A stretch of DNA of 64,000 nt, taken from Arthrobacter sp. Leaf234. Its GTDB lineage: Bacteria; Actinomycetota; Actinomycetes; Actinomycetales; Micrococcaceae. A program made the position numbers and the translations under genes. A model generated the notes under the pieces. That model did not search any database. It was not told where the DNA came from and saw only the letters and a program-made list of their open reading frames with translations. Numbering within the stretch: the stretch's first letter is position 1; each line of letters starts with the position of its first letter. Shown here one piece after another: positions 45,796 to 63,299 of the stretch. The stretch spans positions 517,307 to 581,306 of the forward strand of contig NZ_LMLU01000005.1 of assembly GCF_001422665.1 (NCBI RefSeq). The letters are read 5' to 3'.

Positions 45796-48700
45796 GTGAA
45801 GTTCGTAGGTCTCAGACGCGCGCAGGCGAAGCATCGCCGCGCCCTCTCGACGGCGGTCGCCACTGCCGTGACGGGTGGCGTCGTCGCCGGTGCGCTCCTC
45901 TATCCGGGCTTCGCGACCGCCGATGTCGACCTGAACGACGGCGGCGTGTGGGTCACCAACGAGAACCTCGGAATGGTGGGCCACCTCAACTACCAGTCAC
46001 GCCTGCTCGACGGGGGGTACGCGGCCAACAGCGACGCCTTCGACCTCCGCCAGGAGGCGTCGACGGTCTTCAACATCAACACCGACCAGTCGAAGGTCAG
46101 CCCCGTCGACATCGCCAACGTGGTGCGCGGCACGGAGGTGCAGCTGCCCGGAGCGGCCGAGGTGGCCATGGGCGGCACCACGGTGGCCGTCACCGACCAG
46201 ACATCCGGGACCGTCTGGATCACCACCGCCGCCGACCTCGCAGGCTTCGACGACCAGGAGGAGGAACCCGTGTCCTCCGGGCCGGGCTCGGTGGCCGCCG
46301 TCTCCCCGACCGGTCGCGTGGCGGTCGCGAACCCCGAGGACGCCACCGTCACCACCTACGATGTCCGGCAGGACGGTACGTGGGAGGAGCCCGACGTCCG
46401 CGAGTTCCCTGAGCTCGCCGACTCCGGTGACCTGCAGGTCGCCGTGATCGGGCAGGACGCGGTGGTCTTCGACCCGGCGTCCGGGCAGGTCCTCCTCCCC
46501 GACGGGACGCTGGTGGCGTTCGACGGCACCGAGCGGGCCGAGTTGCAGCAGAGCGGGCCCGCGGCGGACGCCGTCGCGATCGCGACCGAGACCTCGCTCA
46601 TCCAGCAGCCGCTCGACGGCGCCGACGCCGTGGTGACGGACATCGGCAACGGCCGGCCCGCAGCGCCCGTGGTGCAGGGGACGTGCCTGCACGCCGCGTG
46701 GGCCGGAGCCGCCACCTACCTCCGCGACTGCCGCGACGACGCCGACGACCAGCGCCAGGACATCCCGAACATCGGGGTGGAGTCCGAGCTGGTCTTCCGT
46801 GTCAACCGCGAGGTGGTGGTGCTCAACGACACCGCGGCCGGCGACGTCTGGCTCGTCCAGCAGAACCTCGAGCTGGTGGACAACTGGGGTGACATCATCC
46901 CGCCGAAGGACGAGTCCGACGAGCAGGACGAGGAGTCCGCGAGCGAGAACCCCGTCAACACGCTGCCCGACCGCTCGGGCGAGAACCGCCCGCCCGTCGC
47001 CACCGACGACAGCTTCGGGGCGCGGGCCGGCCGGACCACCATCCTCAACGTCCTCGACAACGACACCGATCCCGACGGGGACCTGCTGACGGCCACCCTG
47101 GCGGGCGAGCAGCCGGCGTCGGGCACGGTGCAGAGCATCTACGACGGCGCCGGCATGCAGATCGTGGTGCCCGAGGACGCGCCGCAGGGCAGGAGCACCT
47201 ACCGGTACGAGATCGAGGACGGACGCGGTGGGACGGCCGGCGCGTCGGTCACGGTGGACGTCCGCGGTCCCGACACCAATGAGGCGCCACGCGCGAAGCG
47301 GCCCACGACCATCCTCGTGGAGCAGGGCCGGAGCGTCAGCCAGAACATCCTGAACACGTGGGAGGACCCCGACGGCGATGACCTGTTCCTGGTCAGCGCC
47401 GCGCCCACGCCCGACGGCGACCAGGTCCGGACCCGCTCCGACGGGCTCCTGACCTTCCGCGACGTCGGCAAGAGCCAGGGCGTCAAGGAGGTCGCCGTCG
47501 TGGTCTCGGACGGTGCCGAGCAGGTCGAGGGCACGATCGTCTTCGACGTCCGTGCCAACGGCGTCCTGCCCCCGGTCGCGAACTTCGACCACTTCACCGC
47601 CGTCGTGGGCCAGGAGGTGCAGCTCTCACCGCTGCAGAACGACCTCGACCCGGCCGGCGGGCAACTGAGCCTCGCGCGGGCGGAGGCCACGGGTGGGGAC
47701 GCCCCGATCGCCCCCGACTACGAGACCGGGACGATCGCGTTCACACCGTCGGCCGCGGGCACCGCCTACGTCGAGTACCTGGTGACGAACGGCCCGCAGA
47801 CCGCTACCGGTCTCATCCGGGTGGATGCCCGGACCAGCGGGATCGAGGGAGCGCCGGTGGCCGTCCGCGACGTCGCGCTCCTGCCCCGCAACGGCGACGT
47901 CCTGGTGGACGTCCTGGCCAACGACACCGACCCGACCGGCGGCGTGATGGTGGTGCAGTCCGTGAGCACCCCGGACGGGTCACCGCTGGACGTCGCCCTG
48001 CTGGACCACGACATCCTCCGTATCCACGACGTCCGCAGCCTCAACCAGCAGACCACCCTGACGTACACGGTCTCCAACGGCACCGCCTCCGCGACGGGCG
48101 AGGTCAGCGTGCTGTCCGTGGCGGGACCGGAGACCCTGCTCCCGCCGCAGGCCACGCCCGATGCCGCCACGGTGCGCGTGGGCGACGTCGTGAACATCCC
48201 GGTGCTCGACAACGACACGCACCCCAACGGGGACGCCCTCACCCTCGATCCGGTGCTGGCCCAGTCCGTGGACCCCGCCGACGGCCGCATCTTCGCGTCG
48301 GAGAACGTGCTCCGCTTCGTCGCCGGTGAGACCGCCAAGACCGTCTACGCGATCTACGACGTCAAGGACAGCACCGGGCAGGTGGACTCCGCGGAGGTGC
48401 GGATCACCATCAAGGCGCGCGACGACGCGAAGAACGCCCAGCCGGTCCCGCGGAACCTGGAGGGCCGCGTGATCGCGGGGTCCACCATCCGCATCCCCGT
48501 GCCGCTGGACGGCATCGACGCCGACGGCGACTCGGTGTTCCTCACCGGGATCGACAGCGCGCCGCGCCAGGGGGCCGCCGTCCCCGGTACCAACTACATC
48601 GACTTCACCGCTTCCGCGACGGGCGCCGGGACCGACTCCTTCACCTACCGCGTGCGGGACCGCTTCGGCCTGGAGAACACCGGGACGGTGCAGGTGGGCA

Positions 48701-51700
48701 TCGCGCCTGCGGCGGAGTCCAACCAGCAGCCGGTCGCGGTCGACGACGGCGTCCTGCTGCGGCCCGGGCGGGCCATCGCCGTCGAGGCCCTGCGCAACGA
48801 CTCCGACCCCGACGGAGATCCCCTGCGCCTGGTCCCGGAGGCGCTCTCCGCGGAGCCTGCCGGGATGGCGCCGGAGATCCGCGACGGCCGCATCCTGTTC
48901 ACGGCGCCGGAGGAGCAGGGCACCTTCACGGTGCGGTACCGGGTCACGGACGGCCGGGGCGGGAGCGCCGACGCGGCGATCACCGTCACGGTCGACCAGA
49001 ACGCCGAGCTGCTCCTGCCGATCGCCCGCGACGACCGCGTGGAGCCGTCCGAGACCAGGGGGGAGACCGCCGTCGTCGTCCCCGTCCTCGACAACGACGA
49101 GGATCCCGACGGTGTCCGCGAGGACCTCGAGGTGACCGTCGACCCCGCCTACGAGGGCGTCACGGTCGGCCGGGACGACGTGGTGACGGTCGATCTCACC
49201 GCCGAGGACCAGCTCATCCCGTACGAGGTCGAGGATATCGACGGGGGAGTCGCCCGCGCCGTGATCTGGGTTCCCCGCCTGGGTGAGCAGTACCCCACGC
49301 TGCTCTCCGACGCACCCCTCGACGTGACGGCCGGCGAGGACCTCGTCCTCGACCTCGGTGCCCTCGTCGAGGTACGCGAGGGGCGCACTCCGCGCGTCAC
49401 CGTCGCCGAGAAGGTCGTGGCCATCGGGGTCGACAACCAGGCCGAGCTGATCCGGGACCCGGGCACGCTCGTGTACGGCGCCGACCTCGACTATGCGGGC
49501 CGCGGGTCGATCACGTTCGAGGTGACGGACGGCAGCGGACCGGACGACCCCGAGGGGCTCAGCAGCACGCTGACCGTCCTGACGAACGTCATCCCCGCCG
49601 CGGAACGGAACATCCCCCCGACGCTGACCTCCGGGTCGCTCGAACCGGCGATCGCGGAGCCGGCGGCATCCCTCGACCTCCGGCAGCTGGCCGGCGACGC
49701 CAACCCCGAGGACGTCGACTCGCTCGCGTTCGCGGTCGAGGGCGAGGTCCCGCCGGGGTTCGACGCCACGCTCGACGGGTCCGTGCTCGAGGTCCGCGCG
49801 ACGGATGCTGCGCGCCCCGGGACGGTCGGCCGCCTCGGCATCTCCGTCACCGACGGCCAGGAGACGGCCATCAACGTCGTGGAACTCACCGTCCTCGCGT
49901 CCAGCCGCCCGCTCGCCGTCGCGAACACCGACGTGGTCCCCAAGGCCATCCAGGGTGAGCCCGTCACGGTGCCGGTCCTCGAGAACGACGCCAACCCGTT
50001 CGAGGACACGCCGCTGACCGTCGTGGACGCCACCGCCGACGGGAACGGCACCGCCACCCTGCAGGGCGACGCCGTCGTCGTGACTCCCGCAGCGGACTTC
50101 GTGGGCAGCATGACGGTCCAGTACACCGTGGGGGACAAGACCGGGGACAGCAACCGGTACGCGACCGGGCAGATCCGCCTCACCGTCGAGGGCACGCCGG
50201 GTGCGCCGGGCACGCCCACCGTCGAGTCCGTGCGCAGCAGGACCGCCGTGATGTCCTGGGATCCGCCGGCCAGCAACGGCTCACCGATCACCGGCTACAC
50301 CGTGACGGGAACCAGCGGCGTGACCCAGGAATGCCCCACGACCACCTGCACCATCACGGGGCTGACCAACAACGTCGAGTACGTTTTCCAGGTCACGGCC
50401 ACCAACGCGAACGGTACCTCCGACCCCTCGCCCGCGAGCGCCCCGGCCCGGCCCGACACCAAACCGGACCAGCCGGCCCCACCCACGCTGGTGTTCGGGG
50501 ACCGATCGCTGACGGTCGACTTCACGCCGCCCACCAACGAAGGGTCCCCGATCGAGGGCTACGAGCTGCAGATCTCACCCGCCCCGCCCCGCGGCGCGAC
50601 CCAGCGCTCCGTTGCGGGCAGCCCCGTGGTCTGGGAGGGCCTCGAGAACGGGACGGCCTACCGGGTCCGCGTCCAGGCGCGCAACGCCGCCCCCGACCCG
50701 TCCGACTGGAGCGACTACTCCGCCGCCGAGACGCCCGCCGGGCTGCCCGGGGTGCCGCAGGCGCCGACCACGACGCGCGCCCAGTCCGTCGGTGCACAGA
50801 GCCAGCTGTCCGTCGACTGGAACGACGCCGACCCCAACGGCGCCCCGGTGACGAAGTACCAGGTGCAGGAGTTCCGCGGGGGCGCCCTCGTCCGGACGCT
50901 CCCCGAGGCTCCCGCATCCCAGCAGACCATCACCGTGGACAACGCGGAAGCCGACTACTCCTACGCGGTGCGCTCCTTCAACCGGGCCGGCTGGTCGGAG
51001 TACGGTGCGCAGTCAGCGCCTCGGCGCGCGGTCGGCAATCCGGCACCACCGGCCCCGCCGCAACTGGTCGAGGCGGAGACCGGTGGAGCGGGCCGCGCCG
51101 TGACCATCACCTTCACCCCGCTCTCCGCCGCCCAGCGCAACGGCGCCCGCGCGGGCGAGGTCTCCTACGAGGCGAGCTTCAACGGTGGGGGCTGGCGGCC
51201 CCTGAGCCAGAACCAGACCGTGGGCGGCTTCGCCAACGGGGAGAACGTGACCGCGACCGTCCGGGCGCTCGTCGCCAGCGACGGTTCGAGCTACACGAGC
51301 GACCCGGGCGCGCCCTCCGCCGCCGTGCGGCCGTACGGCTCACCCGGTGCGGCCACGGCGTCCGGGCGGGACGGCCGGGCCGAGCAGAAGAGCCTCGAGC
51401 TCAGCTGGGGTGCTCCGAGCACCTCCGCGCACGACGTCCGCCAGATCCAGATCAGCATCGACGGCGGAAGCTGGGAGGACGTGGGCAACTCGGGCAGCAG
51501 GACCGTCAACACCAGCGGCTATGGCGAGCGCCATTCGATCAGGGTGCGCTCGCTCAACTCCCGCGACCAGCCGGGGCCGGTTGCCGAGGCCGCCGCACGG
51601 AGTGGCGAAGCCCCTCCACCGCCGCCCCCACCGAAGACCGAATGGACCATCACGGCCGGCGGTCCGGACCTGAGCTCGCGCAGCTGCATGGACCCGGCCA

Positions 51701-51921
51701 ACGGCACGAACTTCAACGACGCGACCCGCGACTGCGCCGGGGAGCACTGGATGTACAACAACACCTCCATGACCTCCAACTGCTACATCAACCGGGCAAG
51801 CGGGCCCTGGTACCGGCAGAAGTCCGGTCCGAACCGTGACGCCAACAACGACGGCCTCTTCCTGAAGGGCATCCACACCACGGCGGGCAACAACCCGCCG
51901 GACGGGATGCGTCCGTGCTGA
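45796..51921 (+). CDS. Giant surface protein with Ig-like and FN3 repeats
   Basis: This 2041-residue protein has a basic N-terminus, a signal anchor (about 18-38), and a region of about 330 residues that looks like a beta-propeller (DVDLNDGGVWVTNENLGMV, repeated DVWLV- and VWIT-type strands). An acidic linker follows (about 371-390), then about nine Ig/cadherin-like repeats with DNDTDPDGD-type turns, five FN3-like domains from about residue 1468, a proline stretch, and a 95-residue C-terminal domain with four cysteines, the last one being the final residue. GTG 45796 gives the family-like start MKFVGLRRAQAKHRR; ATG 45718 is possible. Acidic turns suggest Ca2+ binding. It leads the MoxR/kinase gene set and is probably the surface structure that set controls. 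Confidence 0.85.
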   Translation: MKFVGLRRAQAKHRRALSTAVATAVTGGVVAGALLYPGFATADVDLNDGGVWVTNENLGMVGHLNYQSRLLDGGYAANSDAFDLRQEASTVFNINTDQSKVSPVDIANVVRGTEVQLPGAAEVAMGGTTVAVTDQTSGTVWITTAADLAGFDDQEEEPVSSGPGSVAAVSPTGRVAVANPEDATVTTYDVRQDGTWEEPDVREFPELADSGDLQVAVIGQDAVVFDPASGQVLLPDGTLVAFDGTERAELQQSGPAADAVAIATETSLIQQPLDGADAVVTDIGNGRPAAPVVQGTCLHAAWAGAATYLRDCRDDADDQRQDIPNIGVESELVFRVNREVVVLNDTAAGDVWLVQQNLELVDNWGDIIPPKDESDEQDEESASENPVNTLPDRSGENRPPVATDDSFGARAGRTTILNVLDNDTDPDGDLLTATLAGEQPASGTVQSIYDGAGMQIVVPEDAPQGRSTYRYEIEDGRGGTAGASVTVDVRGPDTNEAPRAKRPTTILVEQGRSVSQNILNTWEDPDGDDLFLVSAAPTPDGDQVRTRSDGLLTFRDVGKSQGVKEVAVVVSDGAEQVEGTIVFDVRANGVLPPVANFDHFTAVVGQEVQLSPLQNDLDPAGGQLSLARAEATGGDAPIAPDYETGTIAFTPSAAGTAYVEYLVTNGPQTATGLIRVDARTSGIEGAPVAVRDVALLPRNGDVLVDVLANDTDPTGGVMVVQSVSTPDGSPLDVALLDHDILRIHDVRSLNQQTTLTYTVSNGTASATGEVSVLSVAGPETLLPPQATPDAATVRVGDVVNIPVLDNDTHPNGDALTLDPVLAQSVDPADGRIFASENVLRFVAGETAKTVYAIYDVKDSTGQVDSAEVRITIKARDDAKNAQPVPRNLEGRVIAGSTIRIPVPLDGIDADGDSVFLTGIDSAPRQGAAVPGTNYIDFTASATGAGTDSFTYRVRDRFGLENTGTVQVGIAPAAESNQQPVAVDDGVLLRPGRAIAVEALRNDSDPDGDPLRLVPEALSAEPAGMAPEIRDGRILFTAPEEQGTFTVRYRVTDGRGGSADAAITVTVDQNAELLLPIARDDRVEPSETRGETAVVVPVLDNDEDPDGVREDLEVTVDPAYEGVTVGRDDVVTVDLTAEDQLIPYEVEDIDGGVARAVIWVPRLGEQYPTLLSDAPLDVTAGEDLVLDLGALVEVREGRTPRVTVAEKVVAIGVDNQAELIRDPGTLVYGADLDYAGRGSITFEVTDGSGPDDPEGLSSTLTVLTNVIPAAERNIPPTLTSGSLEPAIAEPAASLDLRQLAGDANPEDVDSLAFAVEGEVPPGFDATLDGSVLEVRATDAARPGTVGRLGISVTDGQETAINVVELTVLASSRPLAVANTDVVPKAIQGEPVTVPVLENDANPFEDTPLTVVDATADGNGTATLQGDAVVVTPAADFVGSMTVQYTVGDKTGDSNRYATGQIRLTVEGTPGAPGTPTVESVRSRTAVMSWDPPASNGSPITGYTVTGTSGVTQECPTTTCTITGLTNNVEYVFQVTATNANGTSDPSPASAPARPDTKPDQPAPPTLVFGDRSLTVDFTPPTNEGSPIEGYELQISPAPPRGATQRSVAGSPVVWEGLENGTAYRVRVQARNAAPDPSDWSDYSAAETPAGLPGVPQAPTTTRAQSVGAQSQLSVDWNDADPNGAPVTKYQVQEFRGGALVRTLPEAPASQQTITVDNAEADYSYAVRSFNRAGWSEYGAQSAPRRAVGNPAPPAPPQLVEAETGGAGRAVTITFTPLSAAQRNGARAGEVSYEASFNGGGWRPLSQNQTVGGFANGENVTATVRALVASDGSSYTSDPGAPSAAVRPYGSPGAATASGRDGRAEQKSLELSWGAPSTSAHDVRQIQISIDGGSWEDVGNSGSRTVNTSGYGERHSIRVRSLNSRDQPGPVAEAAARSGEAPPPPPPPKTEWTITAGGPDLSSRSCMDPANGTNFNDATRDCAGEHWMYNNTSMTSNCYINRASGPWYRQKSGPNRDANNDGLFLKGIHTTAGNNPPDGMRPC

Positions 51922-52007
51922 CCGCGCCGTCGACGCCGCTCCCGTGAGCATCTGAGCTCCACCGACCGCCCCACCCACCCCACCCACCCCATTCGAGGAC
52001 GCACCAC

Positions 52008-52979
52008 ATGACCATGACCGCAGAACAGGCCACCTGGTTCGCCGGCACCTTCGACAAGCTCGTGGAGAACATCGGCGAGGCCGTGCTCGGCAAGACGTAC
52101 GTGGTCCGCCTCGTCCTCACGGCGCTGTTGACCGAGGGTCATGTGCTCCTCGAGGACGCCCCGGGCACCGGCAAGACCATGCTCGCCCGGTCCCTGGCCG
52201 CGACGGTGCGGGGCAGCCACTCCCGCATCCAGTTCACCCCCGACCTCCTGCCCTCGGACGTCACCGGCGTGACGATCTACGACCAGAAGACGCAGAACTT
52301 CGAGTACCACCGGGGCCCCATCTTCGCGAACATCGTCCTCGCCGACGAGATCAACCGGGCCTCACCCAAGACGCAGTCCGCGCTCCTGGAGGTCATGGAG
52401 GAGTCCCGGGTGACGGTCGACGGCGTCAGCTACACCAACGAGCGGCCCTTCATGGTCATCGCCACCCAGAACCCGATCGAGCAGGCCGGGACCTACCGGC
52501 TACCGGAGGCGCAGCTGGACCGCTTCCTCATCAAGACCGAGATCGGCTACCCCGACCACGCCTCCACCGTGAAGCTGCTGGGCGGCGCCGCCACACGGGA
52601 CCGTTCGCTGGCGCTCACGCCGATCATCACCACGTCCGCCGTCGTGGAGATGGCGGACCTCGCCGCCGACACCCACGTGGACCCCGCCGTGCTCGACTAC
52701 ATCTCACGACTGACCGAGCAGACCCGCAGCGCGCCCGAGACACGGCTCGGCGTGAGCGTGCGCGGAGCCCTCGCGATGGTGCGCGCGGCGAAGGTCTGGG
52801 CCGCGGGGCAGGGCAGGCACTACGTGCTCCCGGACGACGTCAAGGAGCTGGCCCCCTTCGTGTGGACGCACCGCTTCGTCATGGACCCCGAGGCGGAGTT
52901 CGCTGGGGCGACGGCGGAAGCCGTCCTCCGCCGCGTCCTCGACGACGTCCCCGCGCCCCAGCAGCGCCTGTCCGCCTGA
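52008..52979 (+). CDS. MoxR-family AAA+ ATPase
   Basis: This 323-residue protein has Walker A in EDAPGTGKTMLARSL (K56), a MoxR-type FTPDLLPSDVTG insert, Walker B in IVLADEINRASPKTQSALLE, sensor 1 in MVIATQNPIEQAGTY and the arginine-finger region LPEAQLDRFLIK. MoxR ATPases act as chaperones that remodel or mature partner complexes, usually together with VWA or DUF58 proteins. A DUF58 gene follows 27 bases later, as expected. ATG 52008 has only a weak GAGGA upstream; ATG 52014 is an alternative. Confidence 0.94.
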   Translation: MTMTAEQATWFAGTFDKLVENIGEAVLGKTYVVRLVLTALLTEGHVLLEDAPGTGKTMLARSLAATVRGSHSRIQFTPDLLPSDVTGVTIYDQKTQNFEYHRGPIFANIVLADEINRASPKTQSALLEVMEESRVTVDGVSYTNERPFMVIATQNPIEQAGTYRLPEAQLDRFLIKTEIGYPDHASTVKLLGGAATRDRSLALTPIITTSAVVEMADLAADTHVDPAVLDYISRLTEQTRSAPETRLGVSVRGALAMVRAAKVWAAGQGRHYVLPDDVKELAPFVWTHRFVMDPEAEFAGATAEAVLRRVLDDVPAPQQRLSA

Positions 52980-53006
52980 CGGCTGCACCGACCGGATGAG
53001 GACAGC

Positions 53007-54407
53007 ATGAGCTCCACCACGGCCCGCCGACCCCGCCGGTCCCGTGCGGCAGCGGACGGGACGACCGCGCAGCGGGCAGCGGCCGACCGCCCGCCGGCCG
53101 GCCGAGGGCAGGACCGGGCGGCACCTGGACGGCCGGCTGCCGGTCGAGGCGCGGTACGGGCGCCAGCCGGACGGACCACCGCCGGTCGCGTCGCGGCCTC
53201 CCGCATCGCTGCACTCCTGCGCCGAGCCCGAGAGCGCATCCGGCACGCCTCGGCACCGGTGACCGACGTCGTCGGGCCGCTCGGATGGTTGCTGCTCGGA
53301 CTCGTCATGCTCCTCGCCACGCTCGGGACGGCCCTCGGCTGGGACGAGGCCGTCATCGCGGCGGTGCTGGGAGCCATGCTGCTGCTCCTCGCCGTGGCCT
53401 TCATCCTGGGCCGCTCCGCCTACGAGGTGGAGCTGGACCTCGCCCGCACCCGCGTGGCGGTCGGCGACCGTGCCGTCGGCGGCGTCACCGTCGCGAACGC
53501 CTCGGACCGCACCCTGCTCCCGGCGTCGCTCGAGCTGCCTGTGGGAGCCTCCACCGCGCTGTTCCACCTGCCCCGGCTGCGGCCGGGGCAGGACCACGAG
53601 GACCTCTTCAGCATCCCGACCCAGCGACGCGCGGTGATCGTCGTCGGGCCCGTCCGCTCGGTGCGACAGGACCCGCTCGGACTGCTCCGCCGGCAGGTGA
53701 CCTGGACGGACCCGACGGACCTCTACGTCCACCCGCGCACCGCCCCGCTCACCGGCTCGGCGGCCGGTTTCATCAAGGACCTCGAAGGGCTCCCCACCAG
53801 GGAGCTCTCGAATGCCGACGTCTCCTTCCACGCGCTGCGCGAGTACGTGCCGGGCGACGACCGCCGTCACATCCACTGGAAGACCACCGCGCGCACCAAC
53901 ACCCTCATGGTCCGCCAGTTCGAGGAGACCCGGCGCTCGCACCTGGCCGTCGCCCTGTCGGTCACCACTGCCGAGTACGACGGCGAGGCGGCCTTCGAAC
54001 TCGCGGTCTCGGTCGCCGCGTCGATCGGGCTGCAGGCGCTGCGCGAGCAGCGGAACCTGAGTGTCCTGACGCAGGACGGCCCGCTGCGCTCCGAGACCGG
54101 CCGTGCCCTGCTGGATGCCGTGACGCGTATCGAGGGCAGGGTCCTCCGCGCCACCGCCGTCGACCTCGCACGCACCACGGCCGACGCCGTCCCCAACGCC
54201 TCCGTGGTGTTCCTGGTGGTCGGCGCGTCGGTCACGCCGTCGCAGCTGCGCTCGGCCGCGGCCTCGATCCCGCCCGGCATCCGCTGCCTGGCGATCCGGT
54301 GCATCGACGGAGCACCCGCCGCACGGTCGTCCATCGGCGACCTGACGGTGCTGACCCTCGGGGACCTCGATGATCTGGCCCTCGTCCTGCGGAAGGCCGC
54401 GGCGTGA
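53007..54407 (+). CDS. DUF58 membrane protein
   Basis: This 466-residue protein has an Arg/Ala-rich N-terminal tail of about 85 residues, two membrane segments (about 92-112 and 115-137), an outer or cytosolic beta-rich part, and the DUF58 core with REYVPGDDRRHIHWKTTART. The Arg/Ala tail is unusual in length. DUF58 proteins share the VWA-like fold region and are standard partners of MoxR ATPases. The following transglutaminase-fold gene overlaps by four bases (GTGA), the usual order in this gene set. Confidence 0.88.
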   Translation: MSSTTARRPRRSRAAADGTTAQRAAADRPPAGRGQDRAAPGRPAAGRGAVRAPAGRTTAGRVAASRIAALLRRARERIRHASAPVTDVVGPLGWLLLGLVMLLATLGTALGWDEAVIAAVLGAMLLLLAVAFILGRSAYEVELDLARTRVAVGDRAVGGVTVANASDRTLLPASLELPVGASTALFHLPRLRPGQDHEDLFSIPTQRRAVIVVGPVRSVRQDPLGLLRRQVTWTDPTDLYVHPRTAPLTGSAAGFIKDLEGLPTRELSNADVSFHALREYVPGDDRRHIHWKTTARTNTLMVRQFEETRRSHLAVALSVTTAEYDGEAAFELAVSVAASIGLQALREQRNLSVLTQDGPLRSETGRALLDAVTRIEGRVLRATAVDLARTTADAVPNASVVFLVVGASVTPSQLRSAAASIPPGIRCLAIRCIDGAPAARSSIGDLTVLTLGDLDDLALVLRKAAA

Positions 54408-56902: not shown

Positions 56903-56976
56903 CCGACCATCGAGCCCGCCCTGCCGCGACACCCCCTCCGCTTCGCCGGCCCGCTCCCGGGAACCACCATGAGTGA
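56899..56976 (+). CDS. Possible 25-codon linking ORF between the transglutaminase and PP2C genes
   Basis: ATG 56899 overlaps the transglutaminase stop (ATGA), and its own stop TGA (56974-56976) lies just past the PP2C ATG at 56969. It would keep ribosomes moving across the only sizeable gap in this part of the array. The peptide is Pro/Arg-rich with no family features, so it may simply be chance. Confidence 0.2.
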   Translation: MTDHRARPAATPPPLRRPAPGNHHE

Positions 56977-57964
56977 GCCGCAGGCCCACGGCTCGCACGC
57001 CGTCGACCTCGGAGCTGCGTCGGGCAGTGATGCGTCGAGCGGGCACGGCACCGCGGACCAGGGCGGAACGGCGTACGGCGCAGGTGGTGGCCCCGCTGTC
57101 CCGGCCGACGCCGACCCCGAACGCGACGACGCCCGCCGCTCCTCACCGAGCCTCGGCATCCGCCTGACGTACGGGTTCGGTACGGATCGGGGTCTCCGCC
57201 GCGAGCTGAACGAGGACTCCTTCATCGCCGTGGAGCCCGTCTTCGCCGTGGCCGACGGAATGGGCGGCCATGAGGCCGGCGAGGTGGCCAGCAGCATCTG
57301 CGTACGGACGCTGGGCGCCAGCAGCATCATCGGCAGCAGGGCGCCGCAGTTCAGCGCGAACGATCTCGAGGACCTCATCCGGGACGCGGACCAGCGCATC
57401 CGCAGCGAGGCGGGCGGCCACGCGGGCACCACGCTGACCGGCACCGTGCTCGTCGAGGAATCCGGCGCGCCCTACTGGCTCTTCTTCAACGTGGGCGATT
57501 CCAGGACGTACCGCCTCAGCGGCGGAACCTTCGGCCAGATCTCCGTGGACCATTCCGAGGTCCAGGAACTGGTGGACATCGGCCGCATCACGGAGGAGGA
57601 GGCGCGCACGCACCCGCGCCGGCACGTCGTCACGCGGGCGCTCGGGACGGGTGACGACGCCGAGGCGGACTTCTGGCTCATGCCCGTCGAGGAGGGCGAC
57701 CGCATCCTCCTGTGCTCCGACGGGCTGAGCGGGGAGGTCACGGACGACGGTATCTGCACCATCCTCAGCACCGTGCAGGACCCGCAGGAGGCCTGCGACG
57801 AGCTGATCGCCGCGACCCTCCGGTCCGGCGCGCGGGACAACGTCACCGTGATCGTGATCGACGCGAGCGATCTCGGCGGCCACGACCCGGACGCCATCAC
57901 GGTGCCGCGGGGCGGCCTCTTCGCCGCGGACGCGGACGCCCGGCTTCCCGGTGCGCCGGCGTGA
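56969..57964 (+). CDS. PP2C-family Ser/Thr protein phosphatase
   Basis: This 331-residue soluble protein has a disordered N-terminus of about 60 residues and then a PstP-like PP2C domain. Motifs: RELNEDSF, AVADGMGGHEAG (metal Asp), AGTTLTGTVL, FNVGDSRTYRL, TRALG, LLCSDGLSGEVTDD (metal Asp) and DNVTVIVID (metal Asp). All metal ligands are kept, so it should be active. It lacks the membrane segment found in PstP. It probably opposes the Ser/Thr kinase encoded 1.5 kb downstream and resets the FHA proteins' targets. The FHA gene overlaps its stop (GTGA). Confidence 0.92.
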   Translation: MSEPQAHGSHAVDLGAASGSDASSGHGTADQGGTAYGAGGGPAVPADADPERDDARRSSPSLGIRLTYGFGTDRGLRRELNEDSFIAVEPVFAVADGMGGHEAGEVASSICVRTLGASSIIGSRAPQFSANDLEDLIRDADQRIRSEAGGHAGTTLTGTVLVEESGAPYWLFFNVGDSRTYRLSGGTFGQISVDHSEVQELVDIGRITEEEARTHPRRHVVTRALGTGDDAEADFWLMPVEEGDRILLCSDGLSGEVTDDGICTILSTVQDPQEACDELIAATLRSGARDNVTVIVIDASDLGGHDPDAITVPRGGLFAADADARLPGAPA

Positions 57965-59472
57965 ACCCTGCACCGCTCGGCTACAGCCCGGGGGAGTGGC
58001 TCTGCCTCGTCCGGCACGGGCTCGTCGCCGTCGTCCCGCGATCGACGCCCGTCGAGGACCTGGAGCGCCTGTGGCAGGCGTTGCTTCCGGGCGTCTCGCT
58101 CGGACACCTGCTGCCGGTCGCCGCACGCGGGCTGGGTGCCGGACTCGACGCGGTGCCGCCCTTCGCGCTCCTGGCCGTCGGTGAGGACCTGCACGTGATG
58201 CTGCGGGGTCCGTTCGCTCTGACGACGGCGGAGCAGGGGGCGGAGACGGCGCGGGTGGCCGGGGGCGGACGCATCACCACGTGGACGGAGAGCGTCATCG
58301 AGGGTGGTGGCCGCGGGGCCTTCGAGCTCGCCTGCGGTGAAGCCGTGCCGCCGGGCCCGCTGTATCCGATGGAGTCGGGCATGGTGCTGGCCTCGGTCAT
58401 CCGTGGCGGTACGCGCGTCCCGGGCACGCCCGACGTCGTCCGGGTCTCCGGTGCCGACGGGGTGTCCGGCAGCCCCGCGCGGGAGGCCGTGGTGCCCGTG
58501 ACCCGCCCACCGGCTGCGGACCCACCCCGGCCGACCGACCCGGTGCCCGTTCGGCCCGCCCGTCCGGTGAAGACCCTGATCGACTCCATCCCCTGGCTGC
58601 GCGCCGACGCGGAGGGCGCGGGCTCCGGAGCGAGCGACGTCCGGACCACCGACGCCGGCACCGCCGCGGCCGCGAGGCCCGCCGATGCCGATATCGATGC
58701 CGATGCCGACGAGCCACGCTCCGCGCCGATCCCCGCAGGCATGAGCGATCACGACGGTGACACGATCATGGGCCCGCCCTCGCCCGATGCGGACTCCGAC
58801 CAAGCGGACGTACGGATACCGGAAGTACCAGCACCTGCGGTGCCGGTATCTGCAGCGCCAGCACCGGAGGCTCCGGGTGAGGCGGAGGGCCGGAGGCCGA
58901 CCGCCCCGCAGGCCGTGGGTGACGCCGACTCCGCGGACACGATCGTCCGGCCCGGCGCCGCTGGTCCCGATGCCCAGGAACGCTCGCTCCGGTCGCCGTC
59001 GAGCCCGGGTACGGGTCCGCTGGTCGTGGCACGCCTGTGCCGCAAGGGGCACGCCAACGCGCCCACCCGTACCGTGTGCAGCCACTGCGGATCCGGACTG
59101 AACGATGAGACGGAACAGGTGCGGCGCCCGAGCCTCGGACAGGTGCGGCTGAGCACAGGAGAGGTGTTCGAGCTCGACCGGTCGCTGGTGTTCGGGCGGC
59201 AGCCCTCCGTCTCGCGCGTCGCCGGCCGGGAGATGCCGCGGCTCGTGCAGGTGCCGAGCGGCGGTGGTGACATCTCACGCTCGCACGTCGAGGTGCGCCT
59301 GGACGGCTGGCACGTCCTGCTCTGCGACCTGCGGGCCACCAACGGCACGCTGCTGCTCCGGGCAGGCCAGCCACCGCGCCGGCTCGGCGAGGGCGAGACG
59401 GCCTTCCTGCTCGACGGCGACGTCGCCCAGCTGGCCGACGACGTCTCCCTGCGCTTCGAGGGACTGCCGTGA
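57961..59472 (+). CDS. FHA-domain protein with a zinc-ribbon motif
   Basis: This 503-residue protein has an N-terminal domain of about 150 residues with no recognised family. A long acidic Pro/Ala-rich linker follows, then a zinc-ribbon-like knuckle (LCRKGHANAPTRTVCSHCG) and a C-terminal FHA domain. FHA residues are intact: GR (VFGRQPSVSR), SRSH and ATNGT. It should bind phosphothreonine, probably on the kinase encoded next or on its substrates. It overlaps both neighbours by four bases. Confidence 0.85.
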   Translation: MNPAPLGYSPGEWLCLVRHGLVAVVPRSTPVEDLERLWQALLPGVSLGHLLPVAARGLGAGLDAVPPFALLAVGEDLHVMLRGPFALTTAEQGAETARVAGGGRITTWTESVIEGGGRGAFELACGEAVPPGPLYPMESGMVLASVIRGGTRVPGTPDVVRVSGADGVSGSPAREAVVPVTRPPAADPPRPTDPVPVRPARPVKTLIDSIPWLRADAEGAGSGASDVRTTDAGTAAAARPADADIDADADEPRSAPIPAGMSDHDGDTIMGPPSPDADSDQADVRIPEVPAPAVPVSAAPAPEAPGEAEGRRPTAPQAVGDADSADTIVRPGAAGPDAQERSLRSPSSPGTGPLVVARLCRKGHANAPTRTVCSHCGSGLNDETEQVRRPSLGQVRLSTGEVFELDRSLVFGRQPSVSRVAGREMPRLVQVPSGGGDISRSHVEVRLDGWHVLLCDLRATNGTLLLRAGQPPRRLGEGETAFLLDGDVAQLADDVSLRFEGLP

Positions 59473-61115
59473 GCCCGAAGCGACTGCCGGCGCCGCCTCC
59501 CGCCCTTCCCGGGTACCGCTACGTCAGCCTCCTGGGCTCCGGCGGTTTCGCCGACGTCTACCTGTACGAGCAGGACCGCCCGCGTCGACGGGTCGCCGTC
59601 AAGGTGCTCCTCTCGGACCTGCGCACCGACGGCGCGCGCCGGGCCTTCGAGGCCGAGGCGAATCTGATGGCGCAGCTGTCCTCCCACCCGTACATCGTCA
59701 CCATCTTCGAGGCGGACACCACGGCGGACGGGCACTCCTACCTCGCCATGGAGTACTGCTCCCGGCCCAGCCTCGACGTCCGCTACCGCAGCGGCCCGCT
59801 CTCGGTCGCGGAGGCACTGACGGTGGGCGTCCAGGTGGCGTCGGCGGTCGAGTCGGCGCACCGTGCGGGGATCGTCCACCGGGACATCAAGCCGGCCAAC
59901 ATCCTCGTCACGGACTACAACCGTCCCGCCCTCACCGACTTCGGGATCTCGGGCACCATCGGCGGGACGGGCGATGTGCAGGACCACGGCATGTCCGTCC
60001 CGTGGTCACCGCCCGAGGTGTTCGGGGACGAGGCGGTGGACGGCGTGCTCGCGGACGTGTGGTCCCTGGGTGCCACCGTCTACACCCTGCTCGCCGGTCA
60101 CTCACCCTTCGTGCAGCCGGGGGCGGACAACGGGCAACTCGCACTGATGGACCGGATCGGATCTGCACCGTTGCGCCGGACGCACCGCGAGGACGTCCCG
60201 GACTCCCTCGAACTGGCGCTCGCCACGGCGATGTCCAAGCAGCCGTCGTCGCGCTTCCCCTCGGCCTACTCGTTCGGACTGACGCTGCAGCGCATCCAGA
60301 CCGAGCTCGGATTCTCGGTCACGCCCTTCGAGGTCCTCGACGAGACCGGGGACACGGTCGGCGAGGACGACGGCGAGGAGGCGACGCGCGTACGGCGCGT
60401 CCTGTCGATCGACCCCGGCGCCGGCTCGCCCAGGCCGACCTTCGCCGACGCGCCGACCACCCGCCCCGCGACCCCCCGGTTCCTGCCCGTTCGGACGGGG
60501 CAGGACGCAGCGCAGGGGGATCCGGACGGGGGACGGACGGTTCTCCGCGGATCCTCCGCCGTTCGCGGTACCGGCACGTCATCCGGTCGGACGGGAGCGG
60601 ATCCGGGCACCACGGGTCGCACGACGTCGTCGACCCTCCCGTCCGGGGCGGAAGCCACGCCGCCCGACGCTCCGCGACGCGGGGCACGGCCCGCACGCAG
60701 TACATCCGCTCTGCTCGCGGCGGGCGCCGCCGTCGTGGGCGGGATCGTCATCGCCGCGATCGCTTTGGGCGGGACGGACGAGGACACCGGGCCGCCGCCG
60801 GGCTTCACGCAACCTCCCGCCGACCCGCTCGCGGGCGTGGAGGGCAACGTGCCCCCGCCCGAAGCGGTGCAGGGCAGCGCGGACGGAGACTCGGTCACCT
60901 TCAGCTGGACCAATCCCGACCCGCGGGACGGGGACGTCTACCGATTCCGCACCGTCACGGTGCGGGAGACGTCCGACTGGACCCGGACGCTGCAGACCAC
61001 CGCCTCGGTGCCGGCGGACCCGTCCGGTACCACGTGCATCGACGTCCAGACAGCGCGCGGCAACGGTCAGGGGTCGGAGCCTGCGGCCGCGTGCTGGCCC
61101 GAACAGCCCGAATGA
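59469..61115 (+). CDS. Transmembrane Ser/Thr protein kinase with an FN3-like outer domain
   Basis: This 548-residue protein has kinase motifs GSGGFADVYLY, K45 in VAVKVLL, HRDIKPANIL with D139, DFG D157 and PPEVFGDEA. The kinase ends near residue 275. A Thr/Arg/Gly-rich juxtamembrane region with several possible phosphosites follows, then one membrane segment (about 413-435) and an outer domain of about 110 residues (VTFSWTNPDPRDGDVYRFRT) that looks like FN3. The outer FN3 echoes the giant surface protein of the same array. The usual Mn/Mg and ATP residues are all present. GTG 59469 overlaps the FHA gene stop. Confidence 0.92.
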   Translation: MSPKRLPAPPPALPGYRYVSLLGSGGFADVYLYEQDRPRRRVAVKVLLSDLRTDGARRAFEAEANLMAQLSSHPYIVTIFEADTTADGHSYLAMEYCSRPSLDVRYRSGPLSVAEALTVGVQVASAVESAHRAGIVHRDIKPANILVTDYNRPALTDFGISGTIGGTGDVQDHGMSVPWSPPEVFGDEAVDGVLADVWSLGATVYTLLAGHSPFVQPGADNGQLALMDRIGSAPLRRTHREDVPDSLELALATAMSKQPSSRFPSAYSFGLTLQRIQTELGFSVTPFEVLDETGDTVGEDDGEEATRVRRVLSIDPGAGSPRPTFADAPTTRPATPRFLPVRTGQDAAQGDPDGGRTVLRGSSAVRGTGTSSGRTGADPGTTGRTTSSTLPSGAEATPPDAPRRGARPARSTSALLAAGAAVVGGIVIAAIALGGTDEDTGPPPGFTQPPADPLAGVEGNVPPPEAVQGSADGDSVTFSWTNPDPRDGDVYRFRTVTVRETSDWTRTLQTTASVPADPSGTTCIDVQTARGNGQGSEPAAACWPEQPE

Positions 61116-61131
61116 CGCGGAGAGGATGACC

Positions 61132-61839
61132 ATGGGGGAGCTTGCGCTCGACTACTGCGGGGAGTGGCACGAGCCGCCCGACGACGCCGTGTTCAGCATC
61201 GGCAGGGAGGGTGACCTGGCGGTGGACGAGAACCCGTACCTCCACCGGCAGTTCCTGGAGATCGCCCGGCAGAACGGCATCTGGTGGCTGTCGAACGTGG
61301 GCAGCATGATCTCGGCGACCGTCGCGGACACCACCGGCGGCATGCAGGCCTGGGTCGCGCCGGGTGCGCGCATCCCCATCGTCTTCGGCCAGACGCGGGT
61401 CGTCTTCACCGCCGGACCGACCACCTACGAGTTCGACATCCACCTGCGGACTCCGGCCTTCCGGCAGCAGGCGAGGGCTGAGGACAGCGGCGGAGCGGCC
61501 ACGATCGGACCCGTGCGGTTCACCGATGCCCAGAAGGCGGTGATCGTCGCGCTCGCGGAACCCCTGCTGCGGCGTGAAGGCACCGGCTACAGCGCCATCC
61601 CCTCGTCCGCCCAGGCTGCCGAGAAGCTCGGGTGGGCGCTGACCCGCTTCAACCGCAAGCTGGACAACGTGTGCGACAAGCTGGATCGGGTGGGTGTGGC
61701 GGGACTCCGCGGCGGAGCGGGCAGGCTGGCGACCAACAGGCGTGCACGGCTCGTCGAGCACGCGATCACCTCCCACCTCGTCACCGCCGAGGATCTCGGC
61801 CTGCTCGACGCCCAGCAGGGCCGCGCCGAGGACGAATGA
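61132..61839 (+). CDS. FHA-like protein with a C-terminal helix-turn-helix-type domain
   Basis: This 235-residue protein has an N-terminal FHA-like domain (about 5-110) that keeps GR (SIGREGD), the HR pair (YLHRQF) and an Asn (LSNVG) but lacks the Ser of the SxxH motif, so phosphopeptide binding may be altered. The C-terminal part (about 130-225) is helical and basic: SSAQAAEKLGWALTRFNRKLDNVCDKL looks like a winged HTH with recognition helix, then RLATNRRARLVEHAI. GGAGAGG lies seven bases before ATG 61132; ATG 61126 would leave one base. It could be a phospho-regulated transcription factor, but DNA binding is inferred only. Confidence 0.8.
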   Translation: MGELALDYCGEWHEPPDDAVFSIGREGDLAVDENPYLHRQFLEIARQNGIWWLSNVGSMISATVADTTGGMQAWVAPGARIPIVFGQTRVVFTAGPTTYEFDIHLRTPAFRQQARAEDSGGAATIGPVRFTDAQKAVIVALAEPLLRREGTGYSAIPSSAQAAEKLGWALTRFNRKLDNVCDKLDRVGVAGLRGGAGRLATNRRARLVEHAITSHLVTAEDLGLLDAQQGRAEDE

Positions 61840-61880
61840 TCCCCCGGAGGGGTGGCGGAGGAACCGGCACCGCGCCCACC

Positions 61881-61886
61881 TAGAAT
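61881..61886 (+). promoter_or_regulatory. Possible internal -10 box (TAGAAT) before the RDD-FHA gene
   Basis: TAGAAT stands in a 118-base gap, the largest after the PP2C gene, 71 bases before the RDD-FHA start. No clear -35 is seen. It may give the last gene its own promoter. Confidence 0.35.
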
Positions 61887-61957
61887 CAGGACGGTCGGTG
61901 TCGCACGGTGAGGGGGACGTCCCTGCACGGCACCCCCAGGAAGACAGGACCCATCCC

Positions 61958-63235
61958 ATGGCCCCGAAGCTCGTCAACGCCCTCGCCCGACAGCGTGTCA
62001 TCGCCAAGGTCCTGGACGCCGTCCTGCCCGCGCTGGCGGTCGCGGTCGCCCTCCTGGTCAGTGGCGGGACCACGGCGGTGCTGACGGCCTCGGGTCTGGC
62101 GCTGCTGTACTGGATCGGCGTGCTCGTCTGGGAGTCGGTGTCGGGACGGACGCCGGGAAACGTGGTGGTGGGTCTCAGGACCGTCGGTCCCGCCGGTGGG
62201 CCCCCGGGATTCGGTCCCGTCCTCGTCAGGGCGCTGGCCCTGGCCGCTGCCTCGATCGTCCCGCTGGTCGGTCCCGTCGTGGTGCTCGTCTCCAACCTCT
62301 GGGACCGTGACGGACAGCGGAGGGGCTGGCACGACAAGCTGGTGGGGACCTATGTGGTGGATGTCCGCGCAGGCCGCGATCCGCTGGTCACCGGAGGCAT
62401 CGACGGACCCCCTGCGCGCGACGTCGCGCACGGCGAGGATGCAGGCATCGGACCGGTACCGGTCCGAGCGGATGCGGCTGTCAGCGGCCGGTCCGGCGAC
62501 GGGGTGGAGAACCTGGTGCTCGCCGGACGCAGGCTGCCGGGGCAACAGGTCGGGGGCCCGACGGACCGTTTCGCGCCGTCGAATCCGCCACCGGGATCGG
62601 GTACGACGGGAGAAGACCCGACCGGGACGACCGCCGCGGAGGCTGCAGCGGGACCGGCAACGACTCCGTCGGGAGACTCAGCAGCCGATCTCGCGGCCGG
62701 GGTCGTTCCGCGGGCACCCGCCGCGGAGGCTGCAGCGGGACCTGCCGATGGCGCTGACCGGGCCTTCGCCGGCGTCACCGCATCCGCACCCGCCGGCAGT
62801 GCTGCTGCGCCCGACGTCGCCGTCGGCACGACCTGGGCACCCGATGAGGGGCACGCGGGCGGTCGCTCCGCGCCCGGTCCTGACGTGTCGGCGGGCGACC
62901 CGGCCGTCCCCGTGCTGCGTGTGCTCGTCTTCGACGACGGCACGGAGGTCGAGATCGCCGGGCAGGCCCTGATCGGCCGCAATCCGGAACCGCGGGCCGG
63001 GGAGTCGGTCAACTACCTCATCAATTTCGCCGATCTCAACCGGTCCGTCTCCAAGACCCATGTGCATGTGGGCGTGGACGACGGTGCGGTCTGGGTGACC
63101 GACCGCGGTTCCACCAACGGCAGCTTCCTCCTGGACCAGACCGGGGTGGAGCAGCCGCTCCACCCCGAGGTACCGATGCTGCTGCCCTCGGGGTGCGGCG
63201 TCCGCTTCGGCGACAGACGGTTCACCGTCCGCTAG
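61958..63235 (+). CDS. RDD-family membrane protein with a C-terminal FHA domain
   Basis: This 425-residue protein has an N-terminal RDD domain (about 10-130) with three membrane segments and the marks RVIAKVLDAVLPAL, GRTPGNVVVGLRTV and GWHDKLVGTYVVDV. A Pro/Ala-rich linker of about 190 residues with a 25-bp duplicated segment follows, then a C-terminal FHA domain (about 325-425) with intact GR (LIGRNPEP), SKTH and STNGS. It could hold phosphothreonine proteins at the membrane. It ends the co-directional array. The ATG has a weak AGGA upstream. Confidence 0.88.
   Translation: MAPKLVNALARQRVIAKVLDAVLPALAVAVALLVSGGTTAVLTASGLALLYWIGVLVWESVSGRTPGNVVVGLRTVGPAGGPPGFGPVLVRALALAAASIVPLVGPVVVLVSNLWDRDGQRRGWHDKLVGTYVVDVRAGRDPLVTGGIDGPPARDVAHGEDAGIGPVPVRADAAVSGRSGDGVENLVLAGRRLPGQQVGGPTDRFAPSNPPPGSGTTGEDPTGTTAAEAAAGPATTPSGDSAADLAAGVVPRAPAAEAAAGPADGADRAFAGVTASAPAGSAAAPDVAVGTTWAPDEGHAGGRSAPGPDVSAGDPAVPVLRVLVFDDGTEVEIAGQALIGRNPEPRAGESVNYLINFADLNRSVSKTHVHVGVDDGAVWVTDRGSTNGSFLLDQTGVEQPLHPEVPMLLPSGCGVRFGDRRFTVR
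62631..62742 (+). repeat. 25-bp in-frame direct repeat in the RDD-FHA linker
   Basis: Identical 25-base copies at 62631-62655 and 62718-62742, 87 bases (29 codons) apart, both encoding AAEAAAGP. This suggests recent duplication or gene conversion in the linker. Confidence 0.85.
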
Positions 63236-63258: not shown

Positions 63259-63299
63259 CAGCCGGTCAGCCCGCCGTCGGGCCCGCCAGCCGGTCAGCC
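63259..63299. repeat. 13-bp direct repeat at the convergent 3' ends
   Basis: CAGCCGGTCAGCC occurs at 63259-63271 and 63287-63299, 28 bases apart. The first copy covers the stop codon of the minus-strand gene. Confidence 0.7.

What the first reader, a model, noticed from the sequence alone, without database searches (positions are those of the whole stretch)
45796..63235. Kinase/phosphatase/FHA array coupled to a giant Ig-FN3 surface protein, MoxR, DUF58 and a transglutaminase-fold protein
Nine co-directional genes, five of them joined by 4-base overlaps or gaps under 20 bases, combine a 2041-residue surface protein, a MoxR-DUF58-TgpA module, a PP2C phosphatase, a transmembrane Ser/Thr kinase and three different FHA proteins (zinc ribbon, HTH, RDD). 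MoxR-DUF58-TgpA groupings are known, and so are PknB-PstP-FHA groupings; the fusion of both around one giant exoprotein is less familiar. A model: the kinase senses the outside through its FN3 domain, phosphothreonine marks recruit the FHA proteins to membrane and DNA, and MoxR/DUF58/TgpA assemble or anchor the giant protein.
Basis: partly seen in the sequence, partly recalled or inferred. Interest (0 to 1): 0.85.

Follow-up and report, generated by a model that had tools for sequence, protein, structure and literature searches.

The report
Swappable-tip surface stalk with phospho-switch genes
A soil bacterium carries a conserved gene set for a giant surface stalk whose outermost tip is swapped between close relatives, together with a kinase/phosphatase control circuit and, in many relatives, a secretion motor; related genes in gut bifidobacteria had been described as unique to them.

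Summary
The grouping is not new in kind: kinase, giant FN3 protein, MoxR, DUF58 and transglutaminase-like genes form the published PFNA operon of Bifidobacterium, called unique to bifidobacteria. Here the giant's N-terminal domain occurs in 103 of 198 sampled genomes of the order, which argues against a gut-only origin. New here, as far as I saw: (1) the giant begins with a membrane helix and a predicted beta-propeller; (2) the 'transglutaminase' lacks its catalytic cysteine in 46 of 46 copies; (3) the last 200-300 residues of the giant are exchanged as a block: window and A. bussei are 96-100% identical to residue 1800, 33% in the last 100; (4) one single-contig genome has tandem giants with 5,057 identical bases and unrelated tips; (5) an FHA-EssC type VII ATPase directly follows the FHA-HTH gene in 28 of the 53 genomes with a near-full-length match. 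Points 3-5 were not searched for in print. I read the locus as a surface stalk with an exchangeable recognition tip, an ATPase-driven membrane complex and a phosphothreonine circuit often tied to type VII secretion. Functions are inferred, not shown.

The parts
45796..51921 (+). Giant surface protein, 2041 aa: N-terminal membrane helix, beta-propeller, about ten Big_9/cadherin-like domains, at least three FN3 domains, 4-Cys tip
   Evidence: Pfam; structure; start GTG
45814..45900 (+). Predicted membrane helix, residues 7-35; no LPxTG-like motif in the last 80 residues of 142 of 142 giants, so anchoring would be N-terminal
45946..46878 (+). Beta-propeller domain, residues 51-361, expected on the outer face
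   Evidence: AlphaFold2 on 47 rows, mean pLDDT 89.2, blocks of residues 51-360 at 93-98; Foldseek hits YVTN propeller, BamB, NirF
51330..51921 (+). Exchangeable tip: last FN3 region and 4-Cys/Trp domain; about 33% identical in the last 100 residues to the tip of the otherwise 96-100% identical A. bussei giant
52008..52979 (+). MoxR-family AAA+ ATPase, Walker A and B intact
53007..54407 (+). DUF58 protein, two N-terminal membrane segments; no DxSxS metal site at the aligned position (also missing in the canonical paralogue, so not distinctive)
54404..56902 (+). TgpA-like membrane protein with a transglutaminase-fold domain lacking the catalytic Cys
55997..55999 (+). Codon of residue 532 (Asp) at the place of the canonical catalytic Cys (G-x-C-x-x-Y-A)
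   Evidence: control
56969..57964 (+). PP2C phosphatase, metal-site motifs intact
57961..59472 (+). FHA protein with zinc ribbon and an uncharacterised N-terminal domain
59469..61115 (+). Transmembrane Ser/Thr kinase, catalytic motifs intact, one TM (411-437), weak FN3-like outer domain
61126..61839 (+). FHA-fold + C-terminal helix-turn-helix-like protein; Ser of the pThr pocket replaced (Pro, Leu or Arg)
61958..63235 (+). RDD membrane protein with C-terminal canonical FHA
   Evidence: start
63266..64000 (-). DUF6177 gene (runs past the window end); lies between the operon and the convergent EccCab gene (G000:C5:581479-585510, outside the window)

Best explanation
The locus encodes a membrane-anchored surface stalk and the machine that installs and controls it. 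Shown by sequence or structure prediction: the giant has an N-terminal membrane helix, a propeller next to it, a long Ig/cadherin/FN3 stalk and a C-terminal tip that is exchanged as a unit between relatives. It is encoded with MoxR (active-looking ATPase), DUF58 (membrane protein) and a TgpA-like protein whose transglutaminase site is dead. Inferred: MoxR-DUF58-pseudo-transglutaminase form a transmembrane complex that uses ATP to fold, place or gate the giant through its propeller. The kinase/PP2C pair sets phosphothreonine marks (in B. longum MoxR is reported as a Pkb2 substrate), which the zinc-ribbon FHA and RDD-FHA proteins read, while the FHA-HTH protein carries the state to transcription. 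In many relatives the same gene run ends in an FHA-EssC type VII secretion motor. Ancestrally the circuit may therefore have coordinated stalk display with type VII secretion. In the window's lineage the FHA-EssC is absent and a different EccCab cluster lies convergent to the operon. The tip is a recognition or binding module under diversifying selection. Tip choice arises by recombination between tandem giants with matching stalks or by exchange between strains.
For: Conserved core in 42 of 45 giant loci I fetched (44 genomes chosen to cover the families). Giant in 103 of 198 and FHA-HTH in 74 of 198 genomes of the order (plus 6 weak), 69 shared, Fisher p 3e-21, not corrected for relatedness. 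Propeller model pLDDT 89. Catalytic Cys absent in 46 of 46 aligned copies and His kept in only 20 of 46, while 12 of 12 other transglutaminase-fold loci in which my pattern found the motif keep Cys. Tip: of 125 giant pairs with stalk >=90% identical, the last three 100-aa bins fall below 60% in 40, 58 and 44 pairs, while the other 17 bins never do. Best tip neighbour differs from best stalk neighbour by 20 points or more in 20 of 80. Tandem giants with 5,057 identical bases and different tips. Near-full-length FHA-EssC in 53 of 198 genomes; directly after FHA-HTH on the same strand in 28 (24 of these with the giant within 30 kb), and on the same strand within 30 kb of the giant in 6 more. WXG100-like genes, below cut-off, after EssC.
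Against: No expression, localisation or biochemistry for any Arthrobacter member. The giant is patchy: 13 of 38 genomes of the window's genus. EssC was not found in the downstream DNA held for G020 and G096 (Bifidobacteriaceae), G047, G083, G167 or G197; in G047, G083 and G167 it lies far away on the same contig, and 15 of 53 EssC genes lie elsewhere or on another contig. So the secretion link is not obligatory, and the window's genome has no FHA-EssC match. FHA-HTH sits by EssC without a giant near in several genomes. The MoxR-DUF58-TgpA complex is assumed from gene order. The DUF58 metal-site check did not discriminate. Propeller matches are fold-level only (TM about 0.5). The window's N-terminus has an A-x-A before the mature domain, found in 12 of the 41 rows my pattern could read (of 47), so cleavage and release of the giant cannot be excluded. 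No sigma-70-like promoter was found.
Confidence: 0.55

Rival explanations
1. Host-immune sensing: as proposed for Bifidobacterium, the giant is a cytokine/epithelium-binding adhesin and the kinase senses host signals.
For: Published for B. longum: FN3 fragments bind TNF-alpha, and Pkb2 phosphorylates MoxR (PMC8430577, PMC10688814; passages read).
Against: Homologous loci with the same core genes occur in Arthrobacter/Pseudarthrobacter (named records), which I know as mainly soil bacteria, and across the order, so a mammalian host cannot be the general ligand. It may be a bifidobacterial adaptation.
Confidence: 0.1
2. Two independent neighbours: the stalk module (giant-moxR-duf58-tgm) and the phospho/secretion module (pp2c-fhaZn-stpk-fhaHTH-EssC) only sit side by side, and the kinase circuit serves type VII secretion, not the stalk.
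For: For example in G077, G088, G165, G172 and G197 FHA-HTH lies away from the giant. In G062, G066, G069 and G140 EssC lies near FHA-HTH with no giant close by.
Against: A kinase gene still accompanies the giant on the same strand in 43 of 45 loci, including four of those five genomes (not G165; in G172 it is read in two pieces and in G197 the match is weak). In five genomes EssC follows tgm directly.
Confidence: 0.25
3. Polymorphic toxin: the exchanged C-terminal tip is a toxin delivered on contact, like CdiA or Rhs C-termini (recalled).
For: Block exchange of the C-terminus behind a long conserved stalk; tandem copies with different ends.
Against: Only 86 bases separate giant and moxR in the window, so no immunity gene there. 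Tips are small 4-Cys/Trp domains with no Pfam or credible PDB match, and a profile search found no spare tip in the own genome.
Confidence: 0.08
4. Tip diversity is escape from phages that use the stalk as receptor, with no recognition function of its own.
For: The outermost part alone diversifies, while the stalk stays 96-100% identical in the closest pair.
Against: Conserved Cys/Trp framework within the tip family suggests a kept binding fold; no phage data.
Confidence: 0.15

Closest known systems
PFNA operon of Bifidobacterium (pkb2-fn3-aaa-atp-duf58-tgm, then prpC, hypothetical, fha in some)
   Same: Same five core families; MoxR-DUF58-TGM in the same internal order directly after the giant. 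Genomes of one family (f4: G003, G020, G096) show kinase-giant-moxR-duf58-tgm; in G152 moxR is read in one frame with the giant. G096's phosphoketolase is near-identical to PDB 3ahc, which I recall as the B. breve enzyme.
   Different: The kinase is seventh, not first; PP2C, zinc-ribbon FHA, FHA-HTH and RDD-FHA added (some bifidobacteria have prpC and fha); Arthrobacter; 4-Cys tip. The papers call the cluster or protein unique to bifidobacteria.
MoxR-DUF58-TgpA operons
   Same: Same three families side by side; the window's genome has a separate one at G000:C5 about 477-482 kb.
   Different: Canonical TgpA keeps GYCVHYA; here the Cys is Asp.
Type VII secretion (EssC/EccC, WXG100)
   Same: FHA-EssC follows the operon in many relatives, with WXG100-like genes (below the Pfam cut-off) after it in G008, G011 and G145.
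   Different: No EssC or WXG100 inside the window; EccB/D/E and MycP were not examined. The G008 EssC scores 522 bits to TIGR03928, below its cut-off of 778.
Mycobacterial PknA/PknB-PstP-FhaA/FhaB locus (recalled)
   Same: Kinase, PP2C and FHA proteins together.
   Different: A locus of that make-up (two FHA, a PP2C and two kinase matches) lies elsewhere in the same genome (G000:C1 about 443-456 kb).
MoxR-vWA-propeller ternary systems (Pfam bpMoxR; vWA-MoxR systems in PMC7159879, passages read)
   Same: MoxR, a DUF58 protein (vWA-related, recalled) and a propeller are encoded together; the window MoxR passes the Pfam bpMoxR cut-off (39.8 against 27 bits).
   Different: Here the propeller is expected outside the cell on a giant anchor; the bpMoxR score is far below AAA_3 (210 bits).

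Membership tests
PFNA operon | Five core families pkb2, fn3, aaa-atp, duf58, tgm together on one strand | tested here: met
   the five on one strand in 40 of 45 fetched loci
PFNA operon | Fixed order with the kinase first (PMC8430577) | tested here: not met
   kinase is gene 7 in the window; kinase-first order is seen in family f4 and others
PFNA operon | Giant homologous over its N-terminal domain, not only FN3/Ig repeats | tested here: met
   f4 giants G003, G020, G096, G152 align over 388-399 residues
PFNA operon | Restricted to Bifidobacterium | tested here: not met
PFNA operon | Single transcript | not testable with these tools
   no expression data; 4-base overlaps only suggest it
Active TgpA transglutaminase | Catalytic Cys in the Transglut_core motif | tested here: not met
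   absent in 46 of 46; present in 12 of 12 other loci where the motif was found
MoxR-vWA ternary systems | vWA metal site DxSxS in the partner | tested here: inconclusive
   not at the aligned position in the window; 3 of 46 rows (family f4) have a DxSxT/S string nearby, and the canonical DUF58 paralogue also lacks the motif
Type VII secretion system | EssC/EccC ATPase | tested here: not met
   not among the nine genes; EccCab convergent just outside the window; FHA-EssC next in line in 18 of 46 genomes
Type VII secretion system | WXG100 substrate genes | tested here: not met
   the one WXG100 match in the own genome is at C5:32840, far away; weak WXG100 after EssC in relatives
Polymorphic toxin (CDI/Rhs) | Immunity gene directly after the variable C-terminus | tested here: not met
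   86-base gap to moxR in the window

The most novel reading that the evidence does not exclude
A contact-sensing type VII secretion apparatus of Actinomycetales: a 2000-residue membrane-anchored stalk with an exchangeable recognition tip is mounted by a MoxR-DUF58-pseudo-transglutaminase complex, and tip engagement is relayed by kinase, PP2C and FHA proteins to an FHA-bearing EssC motor and to transcription. This would resemble the threonine-phosphorylation control of type VI secretion (recalled), but in Gram-positives and with a tip-swapping mechanism based on tandem stalk genes. The bifidobacterial PFNA operon would be a derived form that lost the secretion motor.
Probability: 0.15. Interest if true: 0.9.

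Novelty: new variant of a known kind. Interest (0 to 1): 0.68.

Why it matters
Published work explains the PFNA operon through the mammalian gut and immune system and calls it unique to bifidobacteria. Finding homologous loci across the order, Arthrobacter included, argues for a more general envelope function and offers soil strains as models. The dead transglutaminase changes how tgm should be read. The tip exchange gives a concrete handle on what the giant binds. The link to FHA-EssC connects kinase/FHA genes and a giant surface protein to type VII secretion, whose control in these bacteria is, to my knowledge, little known.

Tried and rejected
Considered the canonical PknA/PknB-PstP-FhaAB locus: rejected, a locus of that make-up lies elsewhere. 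Considered a plain MoxR-DUF58-TgpA operon: rejected, that one is separate and keeps its Cys. Considered WXG100 genes inside the window: not found. Considered silent tip cassettes in the genome: one tip only by profile. Considered polymorphic toxin: no immunity gene at the junction. Looked for plasmid copies: one weak match only, 6% of the query. Rfam: nothing at 45-64 kb. Promoter/terminator scan: at or below chance. PDB sequence search with the propeller, FHA-HTH and tip profiles gave only non-significant hits. My idea that DUF58 here has lost a vWA metal site is dropped as evidence: the canonical paralogue lacks the motif too. In one search, 14 of 30 transglutaminase loci gave no motif under my pattern and are not counted. 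In one search two identical duplicates of 144 giants were dropped; proteins under 1750 aa were left out. Some of the 123 loci may come from the same genome under a handle and a name. Genomes fetched for synteny were chosen by me to cover families, not drawn at random, and stretches of 20 kb cut some loci short, so gene counts there are lower bounds. One stretch (G182, 200 bases, L107) was asked for by mistake and not used. L112, from a record titled Vibrio cholerae that carries Arthrobacter-like DNA, was fetched by the database search and is one row in the giant comparisons.
Full report
Identity. The window lies at G000:C5:517307-581306. Its giant's first 400 residues are 98% identical to Arthrobacter bussei, so this is an Arthrobacter or very near.

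Observation. All nine genes exist at the stated place and strand. Four tight junctions (three 4-base overlaps, one 10-base gap) tie six genes. Pfam supports the domain calls, with two cautions: gene 8's FHA is seen only by structure (model mean pLDDT 88; best Foldseek hits are FHA domains, Rv1747 FHA-1 first), and the kinase's FN3 is below cut-off.

Known relative. [quoted passage not shown] abstract, one whole section and passages read). Its core is pkb2, fn3, aaa-atp (MoxR), duf58, tgm, with prpC, a hypothetical gene and fha in some species, and it reports MoxR as a Pkb2 substrate. It calls the cluster and the FN3 protein unique to bifidobacteria; PMC10688814 says FN3 is found only in Bifidobacterium (passages). 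I also read passages of PMC12607495, PMC6803598, PMC12067865 and PMC7159879. The word propeller is in none of the four PFNA papers, and a search for it with FN3 protein and Bifidobacterium found no paper. I saw no mention of a missing catalytic Cys in the two in which I looked for such terms. Searches that could have shown this locus outside bifidobacteria gave none; the mycobacterial review PMC12067865 only notes a resemblance of the moxR operon to PFNA. I made no print search for tip exchange in this protein or for the type VII link.

Distribution. The giant's first 425 residues match in 103 of 198 genomes of the order. The FHA-HTH protein matches in 80, six of them weak; of the 74 strong, 69 also have the giant (Fisher p 3e-21, not corrected for shared ancestry). 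With a profile, 27 of 346 genomes of the phylum match, several weakly. Inside the window's genus 13 of 38 have it. Of 44 genomes I chose to cover the families, 45 giant loci were read: duf58 and tgm in 45, moxR in 42 (in G152, one of the three, moxR is read in one frame with the giant), kinase in 43, FHA-HTH in 28, PP2C, zinc-ribbon FHA and RDD-FHA in 24 each; 20 have all seven others, the RDD gene aside. These are lower bounds where a 20-kb stretch ended. Family f4 has the PFNA order, kinase first; G096 there carries a phosphoketolase almost identical to PDB 3ahc, which I recall as the B. breve enzyme. In G077, G088, G165, G172 and G197, among others, the FHA-HTH gene lies apart from the giant, so the locus looks like two modules that often travel together.

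The giant. AlphaFold2 on 47 rows gives a membrane helix (7-35) and a beta-propeller (51-361), mean pLDDT 89.2, pTM 0.81; Foldseek returns YVTN, BamB and NirF propellers. A hydropathy scan finds an N-terminal membrane segment in 115 of 142 giants, a C-terminal one in none, and an LPxTG-like motif in the last 80 residues in none. An A-x-A that might be cut precedes the mature part in 12 of the 41 rows my pattern could read, out of 47, the window among them, so anchoring is likely but not settled.

The machine. MoxR Walker motifs, kinase and PP2C catalytic motifs are conserved (one of 44 MoxR rows departs inside Walker A, and the kinase Lys and HRD columns are gapped in two of 42 rows). In the transglutaminase-like protein the place of the catalytic Cys (G-x-C-x-x-Y/F-A expected) holds Asp in 28, Ala in 7, Ser in 6, Glu in 4 and Gly in 1 of 46 rows, the f4 rows included; the catalytic His is kept in 20. 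In 30 transglutaminase-fold loci of relatives my pattern found the motif in 16: 12 with Cys, and 4 without, all four on contigs with a giant near. DUF58 shows no DxSxS at the aligned place, but neither does the canonical paralogue, so this says nothing. The zinc-ribbon FHA and RDD-FHA proteins keep the Gly-Arg, Ser and Asn-Gly residues; His is kept except in one of 30 zinc-ribbon rows. In FHA-HTH the Ser position is Pro, Leu or Arg in all 34 ungapped rows of 35.

Tip exchange. Window and A. bussei giants are 96-100% identical over residues 1-1800, then 79, 39 and 31% in the last bins. At DNA level the flanking alignments are 95.9% (up to 51438) and 96.6% (from 51958) identical, and the 100-base bins from 51.4 to 51.9 kb are 41-68%. 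The window's tip is instead 78% identical to that of Arthrobacter sp. H5, whose stalk is only 72% identical. Among 142 distinct giants, 125 pairs have stalks at least 90% identical. Their last three 100-aa bins fall below 60% in 40, 58 and 44 pairs; the other 17 bins never do, among them the bin just before the tip, most of which lay outside the selection region. Twenty of 80 giants have a better tip match than their nearest stalk neighbour's by 20 points or more. G547, one contig, has tandem giants with 5,057 identical bases, about 120 bases of leader included, while the last two 100-aa bins are 25-29% identical. In 31 of 31 same-locus pairs the tips are at most 51% identical, with stalks from 47 to 100%. 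The own genome holds only one tip. Deletion between tandem giants of matching stalk would leave either tip, which is what the window and A. bussei look like; exchange between strains is the alternative. The tip is a small domain with four conserved Cys and a Trp in most of the 19 copies aligned, without Pfam or credible PDB match. This tip family is seen mainly in Micrococcaceae-type giants; other families end differently (output partly cut).

Type VII link. Directly past the window, convergent to the operon, lies an EccCab ATPase above both NCBIfam cut-offs (736.7 and 628.9 bits) with a DUF6177 gene between. In relatives an FHA-bearing EssC follows on the same strand (FHA seen by Pfam in the G008 copy). 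Of 46 genomes with DNA in hand, 18 have it immediately downstream (13 after FHA-HTH, 5 after tgm), 3 (G000, G099, G544) have a convergent EccC, 1 has it upstream, 24 show none in the DNA held, and for many of these little downstream DNA was held; in one of the 24, G038, one search lists a weaker EssC match about 4 kb past FHA-HTH. Without hand-picking: 130 of 198 genomes of the order have some match to the G008 EssC at E <= 1e-60, and 53 a near-full-length one listed at E 0. Of these 53, in 28 it lies under 700 bases from FHA-HTH on the same strand (24 of the 28 with the giant within 30 kb), in 6 more within 30 kb of the giant on the same strand, in 4 more within 9 kb of FHA-HTH, in 15 elsewhere or on another contig. 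WXG100-like genes, below the Pfam cut-off, follow EssC in G008, G011 and G145. The downstream DNA held for the Bifidobacteriaceae genomes G020 and G096 shows no EssC. The window's genome has no FHA-EssC match.

Reading. Best supported: a membrane-anchored surface stalk with an exchangeable recognition tip, an ATPase-dependent membrane complex that uses a transglutaminase fold as scaffold rather than enzyme, and a phosphothreonine circuit that in many relatives is followed by a type VII motor. Shown: gene content, conservation, missing Cys, tip exchange, physical linkage. Predicted: propeller, FHA fold. Inferred: the complex, its action on the giant, direction of signalling, what the tip binds. 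By the strict published definition it is not a PFNA operon (kinase not first, not Bifidobacterium), but the core genes are the same families with the same giant-moxR-duf58-tgm run and the giants align over the propeller, so I treat PFNA and this locus as two forms of one wider kind.

Noticed in passing
L112 (WNZI01000051.1): A contig titled Vibrio cholerae strain 35D carries an Arthrobacter-like giant (82% identical over the first 400 residues); the record looks mislabelled or contaminated.
   Followed up: no
G152:C1:542315-548896 (L106): In this genome of family f4 giant and MoxR form one open frame of 2194 aa with no membrane segment between them, which is hard to reconcile with an outside giant and an inside MoxR. 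The PFNA review reports such a fusion for B. breve.
   Followed up: partly
window 43833-45551: The gene directly upstream of the giant is an adenylate/guanylate cyclase-like protein (Pfam Guanylate_cyc), after a bacterial PH-domain gene and a biotin ligase gene.
   Followed up: no
window 63266-64000 and L234:573-8125: Convergent cluster downstream: DUF6177, EccCab and a MinD-like protein; its other type VII parts were not examined.
   Followed up: partly
window 61126-61839: FHA-HTH: pocket Ser of the FHA replaced in every ungapped row, while the helix-turn-helix-like part (around RFNRKLDNVCDKL) is highly conserved; it may not read phosphothreonine in the usual way.
   Followed up: partly
G534:C9 about 199-206 kb: Giant genes broken into several frames beside a copy with a long open frame, perhaps remnants of tandem recombination.
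   Followed up: no
G122:C4 22000-57999 (L096, L097): FHA-HTH here has an internal stop and two giants come after moxR-duf58-tgm, an order unlike the other loci.
   Followed up: no
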